A stretch of 64,000 bases of DNA. It comes from Pseudomonas sp. LS44 (GTDB lineage Bacteria > Pseudomonadota > Gammaproteobacteria > Pseudomonadales > Pseudomonadaceae). Position 1 is the stretch's first letter. Each line of letters starts with the position of its first letter. The position numbers and the translations under genes are program-made. The notes under the pieces were generated by a model that was not told the DNA's origin, did not search any database, and saw only the letters and a list, made by a program, of their open reading frames with translations. Below, in pieces: positions 50,007 to 61,435 of the stretch. The stretch lies in NCBI RefSeq assembly GCF_024730785.1, contig NZ_CP102830.1, positions 2,728,001-2,792,000 on the forward strand. The letters are read 5' to 3'.

Positions 50007-51383
<1,377 letters not shown>

Positions 51384-51497
51384 AGCGTTGCACTGATAGA
51401 ACGCAGCAGCCCGCACCGCACGACTGGTGCATCCCATCGCGCTGTTCTACCGTGGCTTCACCCACGGTTACCCGCTGCTTACCTCCAGGAGAAACAC

Positions 51498-51905
51498 ATG
51501 AGCAAAGAACTGGTCAGCGCCACGATTGGCGCCATTCCCTATCGCGTGACGCTGTCCGAGGGAACGCATCAATGGTTCGGCGATGCGCCGCAAAGCATTG
51601 GTGGCGGAGACAGCGCGCCGTCGCCGCACCAGCTGCTGCTCTCGGCGCTGGGTGCCTGCACGGCCATCACCGTGAGCATGTATGCGCAACGCAAGGGGCT
51701 GACGCTGGAAGGCGTAGATGTCGAACTATCGATCAGCGCCGAACAACTGACGCCGCCGGCGCTGACCCAGATCGAACGCAAGATCCAGCTGCGCGGCGAG
51801 CTGGATGAGGCGCAGCGCACTCGCCTGCTGGAAATCGCCAACGCCTGCCCGCTGCATAAGCTGCTCAGCGGCGAGATCCGCATCGCCAGCCAATTGGCTG
51901 GCTGA
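51498..51905 (+). CDS. OsmC/Ohr family protein
   Basis: This is a 135-residue OsmC-fold protein, a family of thiol peroxidases and related redox proteins. The two reactive cysteines are in [19 protein letters not shown] and [13 protein letters not shown], about 60 residues apart as in the family. It resembles the YhfA-like branch rather than Ohr, so an organic-peroxide substrate is not assured. A CAGGAGA ribosome site precedes the ATG. It is monocistronic, ending near a repeat. Confidence 0.88.
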
Positions 51906-51912
51906 ACAGTTT

Positions 51913-52022
51913 GGTAGGGTGGGTTAGCCGCGCAGCGGCGTAACCCCCACCATTGCCTCGCCCCGGAGCACCGGCCTTAAGAAGACATGGCGGGTTACGC
52001 CTGCGGCTAACCCGCCCTACGC
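51913..52022. repeat. Palindromic repeat between the OsmC and permease genes
   Basis: GTAGGGTGGGTTAGCCGCGCAGCGGCGTAACC (about 51911-51945) and GCGGGTTACGCCTGCGGCTAACCCGCCCTAC (about 51990-52020) form an inverted pair between two convergent genes. The same motif occurs at 33000-33030. It probably acts as a shared terminator. Confidence 0.8.
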
Positions 52023-52024
52023 AT

Positions 52025-53146
52025 TCAACTCACCCGAGGTTCCTGCGGATCGATCTTGTCCACCGGCACAGGCGATACCACCTCTTCCGCCTGGTAGACC
52101 CAGGACATGAACAGCTTGTAGCCCACCGCCAACACCACCGGACCGATGAACAAACCGATGATGCCGTTGGCGACCATGCCGCCCAACGCGCCGATCAGCA
52201 CCACCGGCATCGGCACCGAAACGCCACGACCCAGCAACAGCGGCTTGAGCACGTTGTCGACCATGCCGGCGATAAAGGTCCAAATGGCGAATACCACTGT
52301 CGCCACCGACACGCCGTCAAAGGCGAAGACGTAAGCGATCACCGGCAAGGTGATCAGCGCCACCGGCAATTGCATGATACCCAGCAACAGCACGGCCAAG
52401 GCCAACAGACCGGCGCCGGGAATGCCCATCAGCACCAGGCCGACGCCAACCAGCAGCATTTGAATGAAGGCGATGCCGACCACGCCCTGCGCCACCGCGC
52501 GAATCGTCGAGGTACACAACTCCGCCAGTTGCGACCCGCGCACCGGCCCGGAAATCCGGCTGGCAATGGCCTGGGCGGTGGCGCTGCCCTTGTCGCCATG
52601 CGCCATGATCAATCCGGCGATGATCAGCGCGATGACGAAGATCATCAGGCCCATCCCGGCCCCCGCCAGCTTGGTCAGCACCACCTTCGCCACACCCTGA
52701 ACATGCGGCAACGCTTGATGCAGCAACCAGCTCATATCACTCGAAGCGTGCAGCCAGAATTTGTACAACGGCTCGCCGATCAGCGGCCAACCGGCCACCG
52801 CGGGGGCCGGCGGTGGAATATGCAGACCGCCGCTATCCAGCAGGTGTTTACCCTGCTGCACCGAATCGACGATCGAGCCGCCGAGCAGCGCCAGGGGCAA
52901 CATCAGCAGCAGTAAGCCGATCAGTACGATGATTAACGCTGCCCGTCCCTGGCGATGATTGAGCCGCGCCGCCAGCCGGGTATTAAGTGGATAAAGCGTC
53001 ACTGCGAGGATCAGTGACCAGAGCATCAAGCCTAGGAACGGGTAAAAAATCGTGTAGCAGGCGACCACCAGAACGGTGATCAATCCGGCGCGAATTAGCA
53101 CATCCAGCAGCTCGCGGGACGTTGTTTTTTCCGTAGATCGGAGCAT
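52025..53146 (-). CDS. AI-2E / PerM family membrane permease
   Basis: This is a 373-residue inner-membrane protein with about eight hydrophobic helices, from LITVLVVACYTIFYPFLGLMLWSLILAVTLYPL to MPVVLIGALGGMVANGIIGLFIGPVVLAVGY. The last of these is the conserved C-terminal signature of the AI-2E transporter (PerM/TqsA) family. Members export small molecules or sodium; the substrate is unknown here. It is convergent with the OsmC gene and divergent from the FAN1 gene. Confidence 0.9.
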   Translation of the reverse strand: MLRSTEKTTSRELLDVLIRAGLITVLVVACYTIFYPFLGLMLWSLILAVTLYPLNTRLAARLNHRQGRAALIIVLIGLLLLMLPLALLGGSIVDSVQQGKHLLDSGGLHIPPPAPAVAGWPLIGEPLYKFWLHASSDMSWLLHQALPHVQGVAKVVLTKLAGAGMGLMIFVIALIIAGLIMAHGDKGSATAQAIASRISGPVRGSQLAELCTSTIRAVAQGVVGIAFIQMLLVGVGLVLMGIPGAGLLALAVLLLGIMQLPVALITLPVIAYVFAFDGVSVATVVFAIWTFIAGMVDNVLKPLLLGRGVSVPMPVVLIGALGGMVANGIIGLFIGPVVLAVGYKLFMSWVYQAEEVVSPVPVDKIDPQEPRVS

Positions 53147-53318: not shown

Positions 53319-53334
53319 CTGTATAAAAACCCAG
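53319..53334 (+). promoter_or_regulatory. Candidate LexA (SOS) box before the FAN1-helicase operon
   Basis: CTGTATAAAAACCCAG fits the LexA pattern CTG-N10-CAG, with CTGT-N8-nCAG and an A/T-rich centre. It ends 15 bp before the start codon of the nuclease gene, where bound LexA would block transcription. The remaining spacer 53147-53318 shows no gene. Confidence 0.7.
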
Positions 53335-53349
53335 CCATTTGTTTTTTTC

Positions 53350-54999
53350 ATGCGACCACCCTTACCTACCAGCCTGTATTACCTGAGCAATTTCCTGACT
53401 GCACTGGATTGGCTGGTCGAGCGCTATGACGACCTGCTGAGTGCTGAAGAACAGCAGTTCATTGGTAACTTCCACACCTTGCCCACCGCCTCACAAGCGC
53501 TGCTGGTGCGCCTGATCATGCGCAAGGGGCTGCACTTTCGCGCCAGCAAACTGGTGTACGAGGAAATTGGCGACAGCCGCGCCGCCGCACAGCCGTTGCT
53601 GGCCCTGGGCTGGATCAGCGCCAGCACCGAACTACCGCTCGAGAGCCTTGCAGCCCTGCTGCGCAAAGACGAACTGCTGGGTTTGTCTGCCGACCCTGCG
53701 CGCCATCGTTCGCTGAAAAAAGCCGATCTGCTGGCCGTGCTCGCCGAGCAATACTTGGAGCCGCGCACCTTCGCGACCTGGTTCCCGACGCTGGACGATC
53801 AGCTCTACAGCCTGCTCATTGACGAGCTATGCGACTGCCTGCGCTTGATGTTCTTCGGCAATCTGCATCAGGACTGGTCGGAGTTCGTGCTCGCCGAGCT
53901 GGGTATCTTCCGTTACGAACAGGTGCCCTTCAGCAAGGATTCGCGCGGCTTTCGCCATCGCCAGGATCTGCACGGCTACCTGCACCTGCATCGTTGTCGC
54001 GAGCGGTTCGACGCCGGCCTGTCCTGCGAGGAGGTGCTGGCGCAAATCGGCGACTTCGCCAGTGACAATCCCTATCTGCAAACCCGCCACGGCAAATTGC
54101 TATTTCGCATGGCCCAGCAGCTGGAACGCGAACAGCGCCTGGAGCAGGCCGTGCAGCTGTACGACCGATGTAGCTATGTCGGGGCCCGACAAAGACGGAT
54201 TCGCGTGCTGGAAAAGCTCGGCCGGTTGCACGAAGCCCACGCCTTGGCGCAGCAGGCTGCTAGCGCCCCGGAAAACGATGCCGAAGCGCAGTTGCTCGAG
54301 CGTTCGCTGCAGCGTCTTGGCCGGCAGATTGGCGTGCCCGCACCGCCGCGTAGATCGGTCGGCGCCGCCGGGCGCATAGATCTCAGCCTGGTCAGCCTGG
54401 GCCAGTGCGTCGAGCTGGCGGTGCGCGAGCATCTGAGCGAACCGCAGGCGCCGGTGCATTACGTGGAGAACACCCTGATCTGCAGCCTGTTCGGCTTGCT
54501 GTGCTGGGAGGCGATCTTCGCGCCGCTGCCGGGAGCGTTCTTCCATCCGTTTCACAGCGGCCCGGTCGATCTGCTCAGCCCGACCTTTCACAGCCAACGC
54601 CGCGAGCTGTTCGACAACTGCCTACAGCGGCTCGAATCGGCGACCTATAAAGACGCCATTCGCCAGACCTACGCCGCCAAGTTCGGCATTCAGTCACCCT
54701 TCGTGCACTGGGCGATTGTCAGCGAAGAATTGCTCGAACAAGCGCTCGACTGCCTGCCGGCCGCGCATCTCAAAGCCTGGTTCCAGCGTCTGCTGCGCGA
54801 CATCAAGGACAATCGCGCCGGGATGCCCGACCTGATCCAGTTCTGGCCGCAGGAACGCCGCTACCGAATGATCGAAGTCAAAGGCCCCGGTGATCGCCTG
54901 CAGGACAACCAACGGCGCTGGCTGGCGTTCTGCGCCGAGCACCAGATGCCGGTGGATGTCTGCTACGTGCAATGGCAAGTCGAGAGTACCGAGGCATGA
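53350..54999 (+). CDS. fan1: FAN1-type structure-specific nuclease (VRR-NUC domain)
   Basis: FAN1 nucleases cut 5' flaps and unhook DNA interstrand crosslinks. The 549-residue protein has an N-terminal DNA-binding region (about 1-130), a helical middle (about 190-330) and a C-terminal VRR-NUC domain. Its PD-(D/E)xK centre is D494 (GMPDLIQFW), E509 and K511 (IEVKGPGDRL), followed by Q521. There is no clear ribosome site before the ATG. Its stop overlaps the helicase start by 4 bp (ATGA), and a LexA-like box lies just upstream. Confidence 0.93.
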   Translation: MRPPLPTSLYYLSNFLTALDWLVERYDDLLSAEEQQFIGNFHTLPTASQALLVRLIMRKGLHFRASKLVYEEIGDSRAAAQPLLALGWISASTELPLESLAALLRKDELLGLSADPARHRSLKKADLLAVLAEQYLEPRTFATWFPTLDDQLYSLLIDELCDCLRLMFFGNLHQDWSEFVLAELGIFRYEQVPFSKDSRGFRHRQDLHGYLHLHRCRERFDAGLSCEEVLAQIGDFASDNPYLQTRHGKLLFRMAQQLEREQRLEQAVQLYDRCSYVGARQRRIRVLEKLGRLHEAHALAQQAASAPENDAEAQLLERSLQRLGRQIGVPAPPRRSVGAAGRIDLSLVSLGQCVELAVREHLSEPQAPVHYVENTLICSLFGLLCWEAIFAPLPGAFFHPFHSGPVDLLSPTFHSQRRELFDNCLQRLESATYKDAIRQTYAAKFGIQSPFVHWAIVSEELLEQALDCLPAAHLKAWFQRLLRDIKDNRAGMPDLIQFWPQERRYRMIEVKGPGDRLQDNQRRWLAFCAEHQMPVDVCYVQWQVESTEA

Positions 55000-57326
55000 C
55001 TTACGCCGTCGCGGTACGAGCGCTGTGCGAGTTCACCGCCAAGGAGGGTGACCTCGACCTGCGCTTCACCCCGGCGCCGACCGCCCAAGAAGGCATGGCC
55101 GGACATGCCACGGTGGTCAGCCGACGCGGCGCTGGATATATCGCCGAGTTGCCGCTGCGCGGTGAGTATCCGGGCCTCACGGTCAGCGGCCGGGCCGATG
55201 GCTACGACCCGGCGCTCAACCTGCTCGAAGAGATCAAGACCCATCGCGGCGACGTGACGCGCATTCCGCAAAACCATCGCCTACTGCACTGGGCGCAGGC
55301 CAAGGTGTACGGCTGGCTGCTCTGCGCCGAACGCGAGCTGGCGGAAATCGACCTGGCGGTGGTGTATTTCAACGTGATTTCCCAGAAGGAAACGGTGCTC
55401 CGCGAACGTTTTTCCGCCGAGGAACTGCGCGGCTTCTTCGAGTTGCAGTGCAGCCGGTTCATCGCCTGGGCCGAACAAGAAAGCGCTCATCGCGGCGAGC
55501 GCGATCACAGTTTGGAACGCCTGCGCTTCCCTTATCCGAGCTTCCGCAAAGGCCAGCGCCAACTGGCCGAAGCCGTCTATCGCGCCGCGCGCGACGGCAC
55601 CACGCTGATGACTCAGGCGACCACCGGCATCGGCAAGACGCTCGCCACACTATTCCCGCAACTCAAGGCATTTGCTGCCCAGGGTCTGGATCGTCTGTTC
55701 TTTCTCACCGCCAAGACGCCGGGGCGCGGCCTGGCCCTGGACGCCCTCGGCGCGCTGCGCAGCCAAGAGCCGGACATGCCGCTGCGGGTGCTCGAGCATG
55801 TCGCCCGCGACAAGGCCTGCGAGCATCCGGACAAAGCCTGCCACGGTGACTCCTGCCCGCTCGCCAAGGGCTTCTACGACCGCCTGCCGGCCGCGCGCAA
55901 GGCCGCCCTCGAGCGCCGCTGGCTGACCCAGAGCGCGGTGCGCGAAGTGGCGCTGGCCCATCAGGTCTGTCCGTATTACTTGAGCCAGGAGCTGTGCCGC
56001 TGGGCGGACGTGGTGGTCGGCGATTACAACTATTACTTCGACATGAGCGCCCTGCTCTACGGCCTCACCCAGCTGAATGGCTGGCGCGTCACCCTGCTGG
56101 TCGACGAGGCGCACAACCTGATCGAAAGGGCGCGCGGCATGTACACCGCGGAGCTCGATCAAAGCCAATTCAATATCCTGCGCAAAGTCGCGCCGCCGGT
56201 GCTCAAGGGCGTGCTGGAACGGGTCGGCCGGCATTGGAACCAGCTGCATGCCAATCAGCAGGAGCCCTATGTGATTTACCCGGCGCTGCCGGATCTGTTC
56301 ATCGCCGCCCTGCAGAAGGCGGTGACCGCGATCACCGATCATCTGTCCGACCAACCGAGCGGCAACGAGGCCGGGCTGCTGCGCTTCTATTTCGACGCCA
56401 TGCTGTTCTGCCGCCTCGCCGAGGCGTACGGGTCACACTCGCTGTTCGATATCAGCCTGGACGCGGACGGTCGGCGCACACTGTCGACCCTGTGTCTGCG
56501 CAATATCGTGCCGGCGCCCTTTCTCGCCCCGCGCTTCCAGGCGGCGCACAGCACCACGCTGTTTTCCGCGACGCTCAGCCCGGCCAACTATTACGCCGAC
56601 CTGCTCGGCTTGCCCGCGGCCACGCAATGGCTGGAGGTCGAATCACCGTTTCGCGCCGAGCAGCTCGAAGTCCGCACCATCAGCAACCTGTCCACCCGCT
56701 ACCAGCACCGGGCTGCGAGCCTGACGCCCATCGCCAACTTGATGGCCTGCCAGTTCGCCGCGCAGCCGGGCAACTATCTGGCCTTCTTCAGCAGCTACGC
56801 GTATCTGCAACAGGTGCTCGAATGCTTCAGCGCCGCGCATCCGCACATTCCGGTGTGGGCGCAATCACGCAGCATGAATGAGATCGACCGCAGTCTGTTT
56901 CTTGCCCGCTTTACCGAGACGTCGCAAGGAATCGGCTTCGCCGTGCTCGGCGGCGCGTTTGGCGAAGGCATCGACTTGCCGGGGCAACGCTTGATCGGCG
57001 CGTTTATCGCCACCCTGGGCCTGCCGCAGATCAACCCGATCAACGAGGAAGTGAAAGCGCGCATGCAGGCGATGTTCGGCAACGGCTTCGATTACGCCTA
57101 CCTGTTTCCCGGCCTGCAGAAAGTCGTCCAGGCCGCCGGTCGGGTAATCCGCACCACCGAGGATAGCGGCGTGGTCTACCTGCTCGACTCGCGCTTCAAC
57201 CAGCCTGAGGTGCAGCGCCTGCTGCCCAGTTGGTGGATCACCAGTCCGCTGCGCATCCAGACGCAACCCGCTACACCATTGGCCGTCCCGTCGACCCCGG
57301 CGATCGAGCCATCCGCACTGCTCTAG
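54996..57326 (+). CDS. RecB-type nuclease / Fe-S DinG-XPD-like helicase fusion
   Basis: The 776-residue protein joins a nuclease and a helicase. Residues about 30-105 carry the whole RecB/Cas4 signature: G33-x3-H37, D68 in GRADGYD, E79-x-K81, and Q101-x3-Y105. From about 180 comes a superfamily 2 XPD/DinG-like helicase with Walker A ATTGIGKT (208-215), DEAH (370-373) and four cysteines (C275, C282, C287, C325) suited to an iron-sulfur cluster. The ATG overlaps the fan1 stop. The pair probably acts in SOS-induced crosslink or flap repair. Confidence 0.92.
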   Translation: MTYAVAVRALCEFTAKEGDLDLRFTPAPTAQEGMAGHATVVSRRGAGYIAELPLRGEYPGLTVSGRADGYDPALNLLEEIKTHRGDVTRIPQNHRLLHWAQAKVYGWLLCAERELAEIDLAVVYFNVISQKETVLRERFSAEELRGFFELQCSRFIAWAEQESAHRGERDHSLERLRFPYPSFRKGQRQLAEAVYRAARDGTTLMTQATTGIGKTLATLFPQLKAFAAQGLDRLFFLTAKTPGRGLALDALGALRSQEPDMPLRVLEHVARDKACEHPDKACHGDSCPLAKGFYDRLPAARKAALERRWLTQSAVREVALAHQVCPYYLSQELCRWADVVVGDYNYYFDMSALLYGLTQLNGWRVTLLVDEAHNLIERARGMYTAELDQSQFNILRKVAPPVLKGVLERVGRHWNQLHANQQEPYVIYPALPDLFIAALQKAVTAITDHLSDQPSGNEAGLLRFYFDAMLFCRLAEAYGSHSLFDISLDADGRRTLSTLCLRNIVPAPFLAPRFQAAHSTTLFSATLSPANYYADLLGLPAATQWLEVESPFRAEQLEVRTISNLSTRYQHRAASLTPIANLMACQFAAQPGNYLAFFSSYAYLQQVLECFSAAHPHIPVWAQSRSMNEIDRSLFLARFTETSQGIGFAVLGGAFGEGIDLPGQRLIGAFIATLGLPQINPINEEVKARMQAMFGNGFDYAYLFPGLQKVVQAAGRVIRTTEDSGVVYLLDSRFNQPEVQRLLPSWWITSPLRIQTQPATPLAVPSTPAIEPSALL

Positions 57327-57591: not shown

Positions 57592-59043
57592 TTGATCCAG
57601 TTTTTACTCAATCGAGAGCTGCGCAGTGAGCATGCGCTCGATCCCAATGTCACCGTGCTCAATTACCTGCGTGAGCACGTCGGCAAATCCGGTACCAAAG
57701 AAGGCTGCGCCTCGGGCGACTGCGGTGCCTGCACCGTAGTGGTCGGCGAACTGGTCGCAACACCGACCGGCGAGAGCATCCGCTATCGCACCCTCAACTC
57801 CTGCCTGACGTTCGTTTCCTCGCTGCACGGCAAGCAGCTGATCACCGTCGAAGACCTCAAGCACCAAGGCCAGCTGCACAGCGTGCAACAGGCCATGGTC
57901 GACTGCCACGGCTCGCAGTGCGGCTTCTGCACCCCCGGTTTCGTCATGAGCCTGTTCGCGTTGCAGAAAAGCTCCCACGGCTACGACAAGGCCGAAACCA
58001 TGGAAGCCCTGGCTGGCAACCTGTGTCGCTGCACCGGCTATCGGCCGATCATCGACGCCGCCGAACAGGCCTGCTGCCAGAAACAGCCAGACCAGTTCGA
58101 CGCCAGCGAAGCGCAAACCATCGCCCAACTCAAAGCCATCGCCCCGCAGGAAACCGCCGAGCTGAACAGCGGCGACAAGCGTTGTCTGCTGCCATTGACT
58201 GTCGCCGACCTGGCCGACCTGTATGCCGCCAATCCACAAGCGCGTCTGCTTGCCGGCGGCACCGATCTGGCCCTGGAGGTCACCCAGTTCCACCGCGAAC
58301 TGCCGGTGATGATCTACGTCGGCCACGTCGAGGAAATGAAGCGCGTCGACGTCACCGCCAGCCACATCGAGATCGGCGCGGCCACCCCGCTGTCCGACTG
58401 TTTCGAAGCGCTGGCCAGCGAATACCCCGACTTCGGCGAGCTGCTGCATCGTTTTGCCTCGCTGCAGATCCGCAACCAGGGCACCCTCGGCGGTAACATC
58501 GGCAATGCCTCGCCGATCGGTGACGCCCCACCGCTGCTGATCGCCCTCGGCGCCGAGATTGTGCTGCGTCGCGGCAGCGACAGCCGCTGCCTGCTGCTGC
58601 AGGACTACTTCGTCGACTACAAGGTCACCGCCCGCCAGGAAGGCGAGTTCATCGAGAAGATCCTGGTGCCGCGCGCCGCCGCCAACCAGACCTTCCGCGC
58701 CTACAAGGTTTCCAAGCGCCTGGACGACGACATCTCCGCGGTATGCGCCGCCTTCAGCCTGGTGATCGAAGCCGGCACCGTGCGCGTAGCGCGCATCGCC
58801 TTTGGCGGCATGGCGGCGACTCCCAAGCGCGCCGCGGCCTGCGAAGCGGCGCTGGTCGGCGCCGCCTGGTACCCGGGCAGCATCGAACGGGCCTGCGCAG
58901 CGCTGGCCCAGGACTTCACCCCGCTCAGCGACTTCCGCGCCAGCAAGGAATACCGCCTGCTGACCGCGCAGAACCTGCTGCGCAAGTTCTTCCTCGAACA
59001 ACAGAGCCCTGAAGTCGAAACCCGGGTGACCGCATATGTCTAA
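57592..59043 (+). CDS. xdhA: Xanthine dehydrogenase small subunit XdhA
   Basis: XdhA carries the two [2Fe-2S] clusters and FAD of xanthine dehydrogenase, which oxidises hypoxanthine and xanthine to urate. The 483-residue product has a ferredoxin-type cluster (C39, C44, C47 and C71), a second cluster domain (SQCGFCTPGF, then NLCRCTGYRP), and an FAD domain (LLAGGTDLALEV; RNQGTLGGNIGNASPIGD). The start is a TTG five bases after GGAGGT. It overlaps xdhB by 8 bp. Confidence 0.97.
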   Translation: MIQFLLNRELRSEHALDPNVTVLNYLREHVGKSGTKEGCASGDCGACTVVVGELVATPTGESIRYRTLNSCLTFVSSLHGKQLITVEDLKHQGQLHSVQQAMVDCHGSQCGFCTPGFVMSLFALQKSSHGYDKAETMEALAGNLCRCTGYRPIIDAAEQACCQKQPDQFDASEAQTIAQLKAIAPQETAELNSGDKRCLLPLTVADLADLYAANPQARLLAGGTDLALEVTQFHRELPVMIYVGHVEEMKRVDVTASHIEIGAATPLSDCFEALASEYPDFGELLHRFASLQIRNQGTLGGNIGNASPIGDAPPLLIALGAEIVLRRGSDSRCLLLQDYFVDYKVTARQEGEFIEKILVPRAAANQTFRAYKVSKRLDDDISAVCAAFSLVIEAGTVRVARIAFGGMAATPKRAAACEAALVGAAWYPGSIERACAALAQDFTPLSDFRASKEYRLLTAQNLLRKFFLEQQSPEVETRVTAYV

Positions 59044-61435
59044 CCATCACGTTTACAAATCCCAGGAAGAACTGGCCGCGCTGTTCCGCGCCGACATGAC
59101 CACCGGCGTCGGCCGTAGCGTCAAGCACGAGAGCGCCGACAAACACGTGTCCGGCGAGGCGGTGTACGTCGACGACCGCCTGGAATTCCCCAACCAGCTA
59201 CATGTGTATGCGCGCATGTCCGACCGTGCGCATGCCCGCATCATCAGGATCGATACCGCGCCCTGCTATCAGTTCCCCGGCGTGGCCATCGCCATCACCA
59301 AGGACGATGTGCCCGGCCAGCTGGATATCGGTCCGGTCGTCGCCGGTGATCCGCTGCTCGCCGACGGCAAGGTCGAGTACGTCGGCCAGGTGGTTCTGGC
59401 GGTAGGCGCCGACAGCCTGGAAACCGCACGCAAGGCGGCCATGGCGGCGATCATCGAATATGAAGACCTGCCACCAGTGCTCGATGTGGTCGAAGCGCTG
59501 CGCAATAAGCACTTCGTCCTCGACAGCCATCAGCACAAGATCGGCGACTCGAAAACCAACCTGGCCTCGGCGAAGAATCGCCTGCAGGGCAACCTGCACA
59601 TCGGCGGCCAGGAACACTTCTACCTGGAAACGCAGATCTCCTCGGTGATGCCTACCGAAGACGGCGGCATGCTGGTCTACACCTCGACGCAGAACGCCAC
59701 CGAAGTGCAGAAGCTGGTCGCCGAAGTGCTCGGCGTATCGATGCACAAGATCGTCATCGACATGCGCCGCATGGGTGGCGGGTTCGGCGGCAAGGAAACC
59801 CAGGCCGCCGGCCCGGCCTGCCTGTGCGCGGTGATCGCGCACCTCACCGGTCGGCCAACCAAGATGCGTCTGCCGCGCATGGAAGACATGACCATCACCG
59901 GCAAGCGCCACCCCTTCTATGTCGAGTACGACGTCGGCTTCGATGACGACGGCCTGCTACATGGCATCGAGATCGACCTGGCTGGCAATTGCGGTTATTC
60001 GCCGGACCTGTCCGGCTCGATCGTCGACCGCGCGATGTTCCACTCGGACAACGCCTATTTCCTCGGCAACGCCACCATCAACGGTCATCGCTGCAAGACC
60101 AACACCGCGTCGAACACCGCCTACCGCGGTTTCGGCGGCCCGCAAGGGATGGTCGCCATCGAGGAGATCATGGATGCGATTGCCCGCCAGCTCGGCAAAG
60201 ATCCGCTAGAGGTGCGCAAGCTCAACTATTACGGCAAGCACGAGCGCAACGTCACCCACTATCACCAGACGGTCGAGCACAACGTCATCCACGAGATGAC
60301 CGCCGAGCTGGAGGCCAGCAGTGACTACGCCCAGCGCCGCCGCGAGATCGTCGCCTTTAACCAAACAAGCCCGGTGCTGAAAAAAGGCCTGGCGCTGACC
60401 CCGGTGAAATTCGGCATCAGCTTCACCGCCACCTTCCTCAACCAGGCCGGCGCGCTGATCCACATCTACACCGACGGCAGCATCCACCTCAACCACGGTG
60501 GCACCGAAATGGGCCAGGGCCTCAACACCAAGGTCGCGCAGATCGTCGCGCAGGTGTTCAGCGTCGATATCGCGCGCATCCAGATCACCGCGACCAACAC
60601 CGACAAGGTGCCCAACACCTCGCCGACCGCGGCTTCCAGTGGTACCGACTTGAACGGCATGGCCGCCAAAAACGCCGCCGAGATCATCAAGCAGCGCCTG
60701 GTCGATTTCCTGGTGCGCGAACACAAGGTGACTCCGGAGGACGTCGAGTTCCGCAACGGCCAAGTGCGCGTGCGCGACCTGTTCCTATCCTTCGAAGAAG
60801 TGGTGCAGAAGGCCTACTTCGGGCAGATTTCGCTGTCTTCGACCGGCTTCTACCGCACCCCGAAAATCCATTACGACCGCGACAAGGCCGCCGGCCGACC
60901 GTTCTACTACTTCGCCTATGGCGTGGCCTGCGTCGAGGTGATCGTCGACACGTTGACCGGCGAGTACAAGATGCTGCGCGGCGACATCCTCCATGACGTC
61001 GGCGACTCGCTGAACCCGGCCATCGACATCGGCCAGGTGGAAGGCGCGTTCGTCCAGGGCATGGGCTGGCTGACCACCGAGGAACTGGTGTGGAACGCCA
61101 AGGGCAAGCTGATGACCAACGGCCCGGCGAGCTACAAGATTCCGGCCATCGCCGACATGCCGATCGACCTGCGCGTGAAACTGGTGGAAAACCGCAAAAA
61201 CCCGGAAGACACGGTGTTCCATTCCAAAGCGGTCGGCGAGCCGCCGTTCATGCTCGGCATCGCCGCCTGGTGCGCGCTCAAGGATGCGGTGGCCAGCCTC
61301 GCCGACTACCGCGTGCAACCCAAAATCGACGCGCCGGCCACCCCGGAGCGGGTGTTGTGGGGTGTCGAGCAGATGCGCAAGTTGCAGCGGCAAACGGCCA
61401 CGCAAGCGGTCGCCGCCGAAGCGGAAGTGGTCTGA
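59036..61435 (+). CDS. xdhB: Xanthine dehydrogenase large subunit XdhB
   Basis: XdhB holds the molybdenum cofactor and purine-binding site. The 799-residue product has the family motifs VGRSVKHESADKHVSGEAVYVDD (N terminus), GQEHFYLETQ, RRMGGGFGGKETQA, the AYRGFGGPQG loop, and the C-terminal HSKAVGEPPFMLG region containing the catalytic Glu. Its start lies inside the end of xdhA, so the subunits are translated together. Confidence 0.98.
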   Translation: MSNHHVYKSQEELAALFRADMTTGVGRSVKHESADKHVSGEAVYVDDRLEFPNQLHVYARMSDRAHARIIRIDTAPCYQFPGVAIAITKDDVPGQLDIGPVVAGDPLLADGKVEYVGQVVLAVGADSLETARKAAMAAIIEYEDLPPVLDVVEALRNKHFVLDSHQHKIGDSKTNLASAKNRLQGNLHIGGQEHFYLETQISSVMPTEDGGMLVYTSTQNATEVQKLVAEVLGVSMHKIVIDMRRMGGGFGGKETQAAGPACLCAVIAHLTGRPTKMRLPRMEDMTITGKRHPFYVEYDVGFDDDGLLHGIEIDLAGNCGYSPDLSGSIVDRAMFHSDNAYFLGNATINGHRCKTNTASNTAYRGFGGPQGMVAIEEIMDAIARQLGKDPLEVRKLNYYGKHERNVTHYHQTVEHNVIHEMTAELEASSDYAQRRREIVAFNQTSPVLKKGLALTPVKFGISFTATFLNQAGALIHIYTDGSIHLNHGGTEMGQGLNTKVAQIVAQVFSVDIARIQITATNTDKVPNTSPTAASSGTDLNGMAAKNAAEIIKQRLVDFLVREHKVTPEDVEFRNGQVRVRDLFLSFEEVVQKAYFGQISLSSTGFYRTPKIHYDRDKAAGRPFYYFAYGVACVEVIVDTLTGEYKMLRGDILHDVGDSLNPAIDIGQVEGAFVQGMGWLTTEELVWNAKGKLMTNGPASYKIPAIADMPIDLRVKLVENRKNPEDTVFHSKAVGEPPFMLGIAAWCALKDAVASLADYRVQPKIDAPATPERVLWGVEQMRKLQRQTATQAVAAEAEVV

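What the first reader, a model, noticed from the sequence alone, without database searches (positions are those of the whole stretch)
53319..57326. SOS-boxed FAN1 nuclease coupled to a nuclease-helicase fusion
Two overlapping genes encode a VRR-NUC nuclease (D494, E509, K511) and a protein that itself joins a complete RecB/Cas4-type nuclease signature (GxxxH, D68, E79xK81, QxxxY) to an Fe-S DEAH helicase. A CTG-N10-CAG LexA-like box sits 15 bp before the first start codon. I recall that P. aeruginosa has a comparable SOS-induced pair, so the pair may not be new. The double-nuclease design and its crosslink-repair role are still poorly described.
Basis: partly seen in the sequence, partly recalled or inferred. 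Interest (0 to 1): 0.72.

Follow-up and report, generated by a model that had tools for sequence, protein, structure and literature searches.

The report
SOS-boxed FAN1 and nuclease-helicase pair
Two overlapping bacterial genes, one for a relative of the human DNA-crosslink repair enzyme FAN1 and one for a DNA-unwinding motor fused to a second DNA-cutting domain, sit behind an apparent DNA-damage switch; the parts are known, but the shared switch and the pairing are worth testing.

Summary
53350-54999 encodes a FAN1 close to crystallised P. aeruginosa FAN1. 54996-57326, overlapping it as ATGA, encodes an XPD/Rad3-type Fe-S helicase whose first ~170 residues are a RecB/Cas4/EXO5-type PD-(D/E)XK nuclease with intact motifs; a full-length Finegoldia magna homologue is solved, 9KQH.

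The box at 53319-53334 differs by one base from the box before this genome's recN. A box of at least 11/16 lies at -100..+20 of the FAN1 start in 53 of 63 named pairs, against 5 of 6015 control windows. In a phylum sample it is 11 of 19 pairs, so lineage-limited.

The P. aeruginosa FAN1 is PA1865; PA1865 and PA1866 are reported UV-C-induced but in no known regulon, and the published LexA pair PA1044/PA1045 is another one (PMC12796719, passages).

The parts are known. Conserved LexA-type boxes on FAN1 plus this partner were not found in my paper searches. LexA binding, nuclease activity and a crosslink role are inferred.

The parts
53319..53334 (.). LexA-like box CTGTATAAAAACCCAG, 15 bp before the FAN1 start codon
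   Evidence: Read directly; one of 18 CTGTAT-N7-CAG sites in the genome; box of at least 11/16 in 53 of 63 named pairs against 5 of 6015 control windows
53350..54999 (+). FAN1 gene, 549 aa, active site D494/E509/K511
   Evidence: Pfam FAN1_HTH, FANC_SAP, VRR_NUC over cut-off; 4r89/5y7g (PaFAN1) E about 1e-195, active-site region aligned
53374..53616 (+). FAN1_HTH domain (residues 9-89)
   Evidence: Pfam PF21315, 122.6 bits
53632..53781 (+). SAP domain (residues 95-144)
   Evidence: Pfam PF18081, 46.2 bits
54640..54975 (+). VRR-NUC nuclease domain (residues 431-542)
   Evidence: Pfam PF08774, 136 bits
54996..54999 (+). ATGA overlap of FAN1 stop and helicase start
   Evidence: Read directly; the same 4-nt overlap in 48 of 63 named pairs
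54996..57326 (+). Nuclease-helicase fusion gene, 776 aa
   Evidence: Pfam DEAD_2 and Helicase_C_2 over cut-off; 9kqh_A E 9.4e-124 over residues 5-747
54996..55505 (+). N-terminal RecB/Cas4/EXO5-type PD-(D/E)XK nuclease domain (about residues 1-170)
55092..55310 (+). Nuclease motifs GxxxH (33-37), D68, E79xK81, QxxxY (101-105)
   Evidence: Invariant in 21 full-length sequences and in 58 domains
55818..55970 (+). Four Fe-S cluster cysteines C275, C282, C287, C325
   Evidence: Invariant in 21 aligned homologues; cysteine pattern in 79 of 80 named loci
56103..56114 (+). DEAH box (residues 370-373)
   Evidence: Read directly; invariant in 21

Best explanation
A two-gene, LexA-controlled DNA-repair operon. 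FAN1 cuts 5' flaps and unhooks crosslinked strands near stalled replication. The second protein is an XPD/Rad3-family (by family 5'-to-3') Fe-S helicase carrying a RecB/Cas4-type nuclease at its N-terminus, similar in layout to Dna2; it opens the DNA and trims single strands before or after FAN1's cut. Shown here: gene identities, intact motifs, nuclease fold (predicted, with a solved homologue), conserved order and overlap, and a box conserved in part of the range. Inferred: LexA binding and induction in this organism, nuclease activity, polarity, cooperation of the two proteins, and crosslinks as the substrate.
For: FAN1 domains and PaFAN1 match. Nuclease motifs invariant; fold match. Helicase fold and Fe-S cysteines. 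In 249 phylum genomes the fused helicase is in 22, FAN1_HTH in 28, both in 19, adjacent in 19 of 19. 63 of 80 named helicase loci have FAN1 directly upstream. Box in 53 of 63 named pairs and 25 of 25 genomes of one Pseudomonas-type genus; the box sits in this genome among boxes before lexA, recA, recN, yebG, umuD-like, SRAP and PA0069-family genes. Six Pseudomonas genomes that separate the genes keep a LexA-like site before the helicase (6 of 6, but weak, 9-11/16) and before FAN1 (4 of 4 examined). PA1865/PA1866 reported UV-C-induced (PMC12796719, passages). FAN1 orthologues cleave 5' flaps (PMC4103454, abstract).
Against: 8 of 19 pairs in the phylum sample and 10 of 63 named pairs lack a box of at least 11/16 in the stretch scored. 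FAN1 occurs without the fused helicase in 9 of 28 genomes, the helicase without FAN1 in 3 of 22. PA1865/PA1866 are not assigned to LexA in print, and PA1865 is reported as repressed by hydrogen peroxide. No Pfam match in the window's own N-terminal domain. No promoter found by consensus.
Confidence: 0.62

Rival explanations
1. The two proteins are separate repair enzymes that only share a damage-induced promoter: FAN1 for crosslinks, the nuclease-helicase for other structures (R-loops, 5' overhangs, fork restart) as for DinG and YoaA.
For: Each occurs without the other: FAN1 alone in 9 of 28, fused helicase alone in 3 of 22 sampled genomes; FAN1_HTH not found in 10 of 17 genomes whose helicase locus lacks it. 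In six Pseudomonas genomes the genes lie apart.
Against: Adjacent in 19 of 19 sampled genomes that have both, 4-nt overlap in 48 of 63 named pairs; the six separated cases still have LexA-like sites at both genes where read.
Confidence: 0.25
2. The N-terminal domain is a DNA-binding or structural relic without nuclease activity.
For: No Pfam match in the window's copy; 1 of 58 domains matches PDDEXK_1 and only weakly. Recalled: RecC keeps an inactive domain of this fold.
Against: Active-site residues invariant in 58 of 58 domains; GRADG in 120 of 120 listed relatives of the window protein, and GRADG in 118 and GRVDG in 2 of 120 listed relatives of the Finegoldia protein. The chain in 9KQH has Ala at that Asp, where a 98% identical natural protein has Asp, which suggests that the depositors treated it as catalytic.
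Confidence: 0.08
3. The box is a chance or non-LexA element and the operon is not SOS-controlled.
For: 12 matches to the reversed control pattern against 20 to the pattern genome-wide, so many such sites are chance; PA1865/PA1866 not assigned to LexA in PMC12796719.
Against: Conserved near the FAN1 start in 53 of 63 named pairs against 5 of 6015 control windows; one base from the recN box.
Confidence: 0.08
4. The helicase is a type IV CRISPR DinG, part of a defence system.
For: PADLOC model PDLC01439 typeIV_DinG matches with 423.6 bits over residues 170-748.
Against: The same model matches 21 of 21 chromosomal homologues, so it is not specific; five neighbour proteins match no PADLOC model and are L-serine ammonia-lyase, an OsmC-like protein, an AI-2E family transporter and xanthine dehydrogenase subunits. 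CasDinG chains rank below 9KQH and XPD.
Confidence: 0.02

Closest known systems
P. aeruginosa FAN1 (PaFAN1, PA1865; PDB 4r89, 5y7g)
   Same: Same domains and active site along residues 3-545
   Different: No difference in kind found; the window copy is a diverged orthologue (58% identity of the window protein to the FAN1 of G383, whose FAN1 is 93% identical to a 206-residue piece of PaFAN1)
Finegoldia magna DinG, PDB 9KQH
   Different: From Bacillota; gene neighbours not examined; deposited chain has Ala at the D68 position
XPD/Rad3 family helicases, DinG and YoaA
   Same: DEAH box, four cysteines, fold
   Different: Scores far under the DinG and YoaA equivalog cut-offs (98.1 against 598; 102.9 against 680); the genome holds one other Helicase_C_2 protein elsewhere; the N-terminal nuclease is extra
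Cas4, EXO5, MGME1, RecB-type and Dna2 nucleases
   Different: Here joined to an XPD-type helicase; Cas4/AddB-type Fe-S cysteine set (recalled) absent from the nuclease domain
VRR-NUC proteins of the T1p21 group encoded upstream of helicases (Iyer 2006, as cited in PMC9635880, passage)
   Same: VRR-NUC gene upstream of a helicase gene
   Different: Those are another VRR-NUC subfamily than the KIAA1018/FAN1 group; which helicase is meant was not checked (paper not held)
PA1044/PA1045 of P. aeruginosa
   Same: LexA-controlled pair including a DinG helicase (PMC12796719, passage)
   Different: Not the FAN1 pair, which is PA1865/PA1866 in that paper; sequences not compared

Membership tests
FAN1 | FAN1_HTH, SAP and C-terminal VRR-NUC domains | tested here: met
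   All three over Pfam cut-off
FAN1 | PD...ExK active site as in PaFAN1 | tested here: met
   D494/E509/K511 align with the PaFAN1 site; D507/E522/K524 there per PMC9635880 passage
FAN1 | 5' flap cleavage and crosslink unhooking | not testable with these tools
   Needs purified protein
XPD/Rad3 Fe-S helicase | DEAH box, four Fe-S cysteines, XPD fold | tested here: met
DinG or YoaA equivalog (NCBIfam) | Curated equivalog score | tested here: not met
   98.1 against 598 and 102.9 against 680 bits
RecB/Cas4-type PD-(D/E)XK nuclease | GxxxH, D, ExK, QxxxY motifs in order | tested here: met
   invariant in 58 of 58
RecB/Cas4-type PD-(D/E)XK nuclease | Fold | tested here: met
Cas4/AddB Fe-S nuclease subgroup | One N-terminal and three C-terminal cysteines (recalled) | tested here: not met
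   Only C110 and C152 invariant and C11 nearly so in 58 domains
LexA (SOS) regulon | Conserved LexA box next to the gene start | tested here: met
   53 of 63 named pairs, 25 of 25 in one genus; but 11 of 19 in the phylum sample
LexA (SOS) regulon | LexA binding and damage induction | not testable with these tools
   Only indirect: PA1865/PA1866 reported UV-C-induced but not assigned to LexA (PMC12796719, passages)
Type IV CRISPR DinG | Defence or cas genes beside it | tested here: not met
   Five neighbour proteins match no PADLOC model; arrays were not searched for

The most novel reading that the evidence does not exclude
FAN1 and this Dna2-like nuclease plus XPD-type helicase form one SOS-induced crosslink-processing machine: FAN1 makes the flap incision while the fused enzyme unwinds and resects, a minimal bacterial counterpart of the FAN1/FANCJ side of Fanconi repair, working beside or instead of UvrABC. 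The split of the genes in one Pseudomonas group, with LexA-like sites before both, would then reflect selection for joint damage induction rather than for shared transcription.
Probability: 0.35. Interest if true: 0.65.

Novelty: new member of a known kind. Interest (0 to 1): 0.42.

Why it matters
Bacterial FAN1 is known mainly as a structure and an in-vitro enzyme. A conserved LexA-like box and a conserved nuclease-helicase partner give it a candidate regulator and a candidate helper, and would explain in a simple way why PA1865 and PA1866 rise after UV-C without belonging to a known regulon (PMC12796719). The pair is a tractable model for how a FAN1-type nuclease may work with an XPD/FANCJ-family helicase.

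Tried and rejected
Rejected: type IV CRISPR DinG. Rejected: helicase start at 54972; 54996 gives the ATGA overlap and fits the relatives' N-termini. Rejected: PA1044/PA1045 as the FAN1 pair; the paper names PA1865 as the crosslink nuclease. Rejected: a Cas4-type Fe-S cluster in the nuclease domain.

Led nowhere: no paper text for 9KQH; the two papers returned for Finegoldia plus DinG plus helicase are unrelated by their listing. P. aeruginosa itself was not identified among the genomes reached; the nearest was G383, 93% identical over a 206-residue piece of PaFAN1. P0096, labelled P. aeruginosa, had at most 76% identity in 148 family genomes, so I did not use it as P. aeruginosa. Consensus promoter scan upstream: none; terminator scan downstream: none. 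Where the genes behind the Finegoldia-type homologues lie was not examined.

Rows dropped: L105 from the tree, because its upstream DNA is not held; G050 (helicase split over two frames) from alignment A1; of 80 named loci 48 went into the domain alignment A2 together with the window and 9 sampled loci; L060 (G207) left out of the upstream reading; FAN1 upstream read in 4 of the 6 separated Pseudomonas genomes.

Paper searches behind 'not found': in PMC open-licence papers only. Gwon 2014, Jin 2018, Iyer 2006, Cirz 2006 and a PD-(D/E)XK review were not held and may already say some of this.
Full report
What is there. The window lies in a 4.46 Mb, one-contig genome; its nearest listed relatives are Pseudomonas species. 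At 53350-54999 (+) is a 549-residue FAN1 with FAN1_HTH, FANC_SAP and VRR_NUC domains, all over their Pfam cut-offs. Its best solved relatives are PaFAN1 entries 4r89 and 5y7g, E about 1e-195 over residues 3-545, with the PDL...EVKGPGD active site aligned.

Pairing. Of 249 genomes of the phylum, 31 match the helicase at E 1e-10 or better. Nine of these match only within the helicase part at 25-35% identity, leaving 22 with the fused form, one of them (G050) split over two frames. FAN1_HTH is in 28 of 249. Both occur in 19, and they adjoin in all 19. FAN1 without the fused helicase: 9. Fused helicase without FAN1: 3. In one, L097, the FAN1 frame is broken and lacks the active-site pattern. Of the 17 others, L105 is cut off by the contig end. 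A whole-genome search found FAN1_HTH elsewhere in 7 of these 17 genomes: six Pseudomonas genomes (P. caspiana, P. cichorii, P. viridiflava p8.G2, P. tremae, LP_7_YM, UBA1879; a syringae group by my recollection) and that of L105. On a tree of 79 named helicases, the paired/unpaired label needs 6 changes (shuffled mean 14.9, 0 of 500 shuffles as low), 2 of them forced by well-supported branches. The six Pseudomonas loci form one group with support 100 inside paired Pseudomonas.

The SOS box. CTGTATAAAAACCCAG ends 15 bp before the FAN1 ATG. In the genome CTGTAT-N7-CAG gives 20 hits at 18 sites, and the pattern read backwards gives 12, so many sites are chance. The A+T-rich ones include boxes before lexA (two), recA, recN, a umuD-like gene, an SRAP gene, a YebG gene, a PA0069-family radical SAM gene, and one near zipA. 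The recN box CTGTATAAATACCCAG differs from the FAN1 box at one base. Box of at least 11/16 at -100..+20 of the FAN1 start: 53 of 63 named pairs, against 5 of 6015 equal windows elsewhere in the same loci; at 13/16, 29 of 63 against 3 of 6015. The loci are related and most control windows are coding, so this is not a probability. Of the ten misses, L093 has a 15/16 site at -142, outside the stretch scored. In the genus of G062 the box is found in 25 of 25, including G383, 93% identical to a 206-residue piece of PaFAN1, with CTGTATGCATGAACAG. In the phylum sample it is 11 of 19: all nine of the window's own family and two others; the eight without are in families f2, f3, f4 and f7. In the six separated Pseudomonas genomes the helicase has a weaker site (11/16 in four, 10/16 in one, 9/16 in one), and FAN1 has one of 11-12/16 in the four examined. 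Of the 12 other FAN1-less loci read, 2 have a site of 13/16 before the helicase and 10 have none of at least 9/16.

Published knowledge. PMC12796719 (passages and section 3.1 read) says that PA1044/PA1045 are LexA-controlled and did not respond to UV-C. It says that PA1865 and PA1866 are among 18 UV-C-induced genes outside the three known regulons, that PA1865 was also induced by ciprofloxacin and repressed by hydrogen peroxide, and that PA1865 is the crosslink-unhooking nuclease. The terms LexA box, SOS box and binding site do not occur in its main text. That PA1866 is the fused helicase is inferred from the locus number and from G383, where the helicase adjoins FAN1. PMC9635880 (passages) reports, after Iyer 2006, VRR-NUC proteins of the T1p21 group upstream of helicases, so a VRR-NUC/helicase link is already in print. 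PMC4103454 (abstract and one passage) says that FAN1 orthologues cleave 5' flaps, used a P. aeruginosa clone, and does not hold the word helicase.

How it probably works. After damage LexA is cleaved and the pair is made. FAN1 cuts near the lesion; the helicase, by family 5'-to-3', tracks single-stranded DNA and its nuclease trims it. Order of action, substrate and contact are inferences. The main rival, separate enzymes under one promoter, is not excluded, because each occurs without the other.

Verdict. A real, well-conserved repair pair whose parts are known. Added here: the box and how far it is conserved, the frequency of the pairing, the nuclease fold with an intact site, and the split in one Pseudomonas group.

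Noticed in passing
PDB 9kqh_A, aligned to residues 5-747 of the window protein: The deposited Finegoldia chain has Ala at the position of the catalytic Asp D68, while 118 of 120 listed relatives have GRADG and 2 GRVDG: it looks like a nuclease-site variant, although the title speaks only of DinG.
   Followed up: yes
window 54996-57326; PADLOC model PDLC01439: A PADLOC type IV CRISPR DinG model scores 424 bits on this chromosomal helicase and matches 21 of 21 homologues, so it may mislabel ordinary repair genes as CRISPR-associated.
   Followed up: yes
L109, L115, L123, L124, L126, L152: Six Pseudomonas genomes have the nuclease-helicase away from FAN1, with a weak LexA-like site before it, 9-11/16; they form one clade.
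   Followed up: partly
G000:C1:1597296-1597311 (L073): One LexA-like box lies between divergent umuD-like and SRAP genes in the window's own genome.
   Followed up: no
L049 (G050), L097, L197 (G409): Apparently broken copies: helicase split over two frames in G050, FAN1 frame broken in L097, FAN1 match only to residue 280 in L197; real breaks or assembly errors.
   Followed up: no
A2 alignment, residues 11, 110 and 152 of the window protein: Three cysteines of the nuclease domain are invariant or nearly so in 58 domains, two of them (11 and 110) not matched by cysteine in the aligned Finegoldia chain; their role is unknown.
   Followed up: no
window 50007-53146 and 57592-61435: Flanking genes are ordinary: L-serine ammonia-lyase, an OsmC-like protein (below cut-off), a divergent AI-2E family transporter, then xanthine dehydrogenase xdhA and xdhB.
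   Followed up: partly
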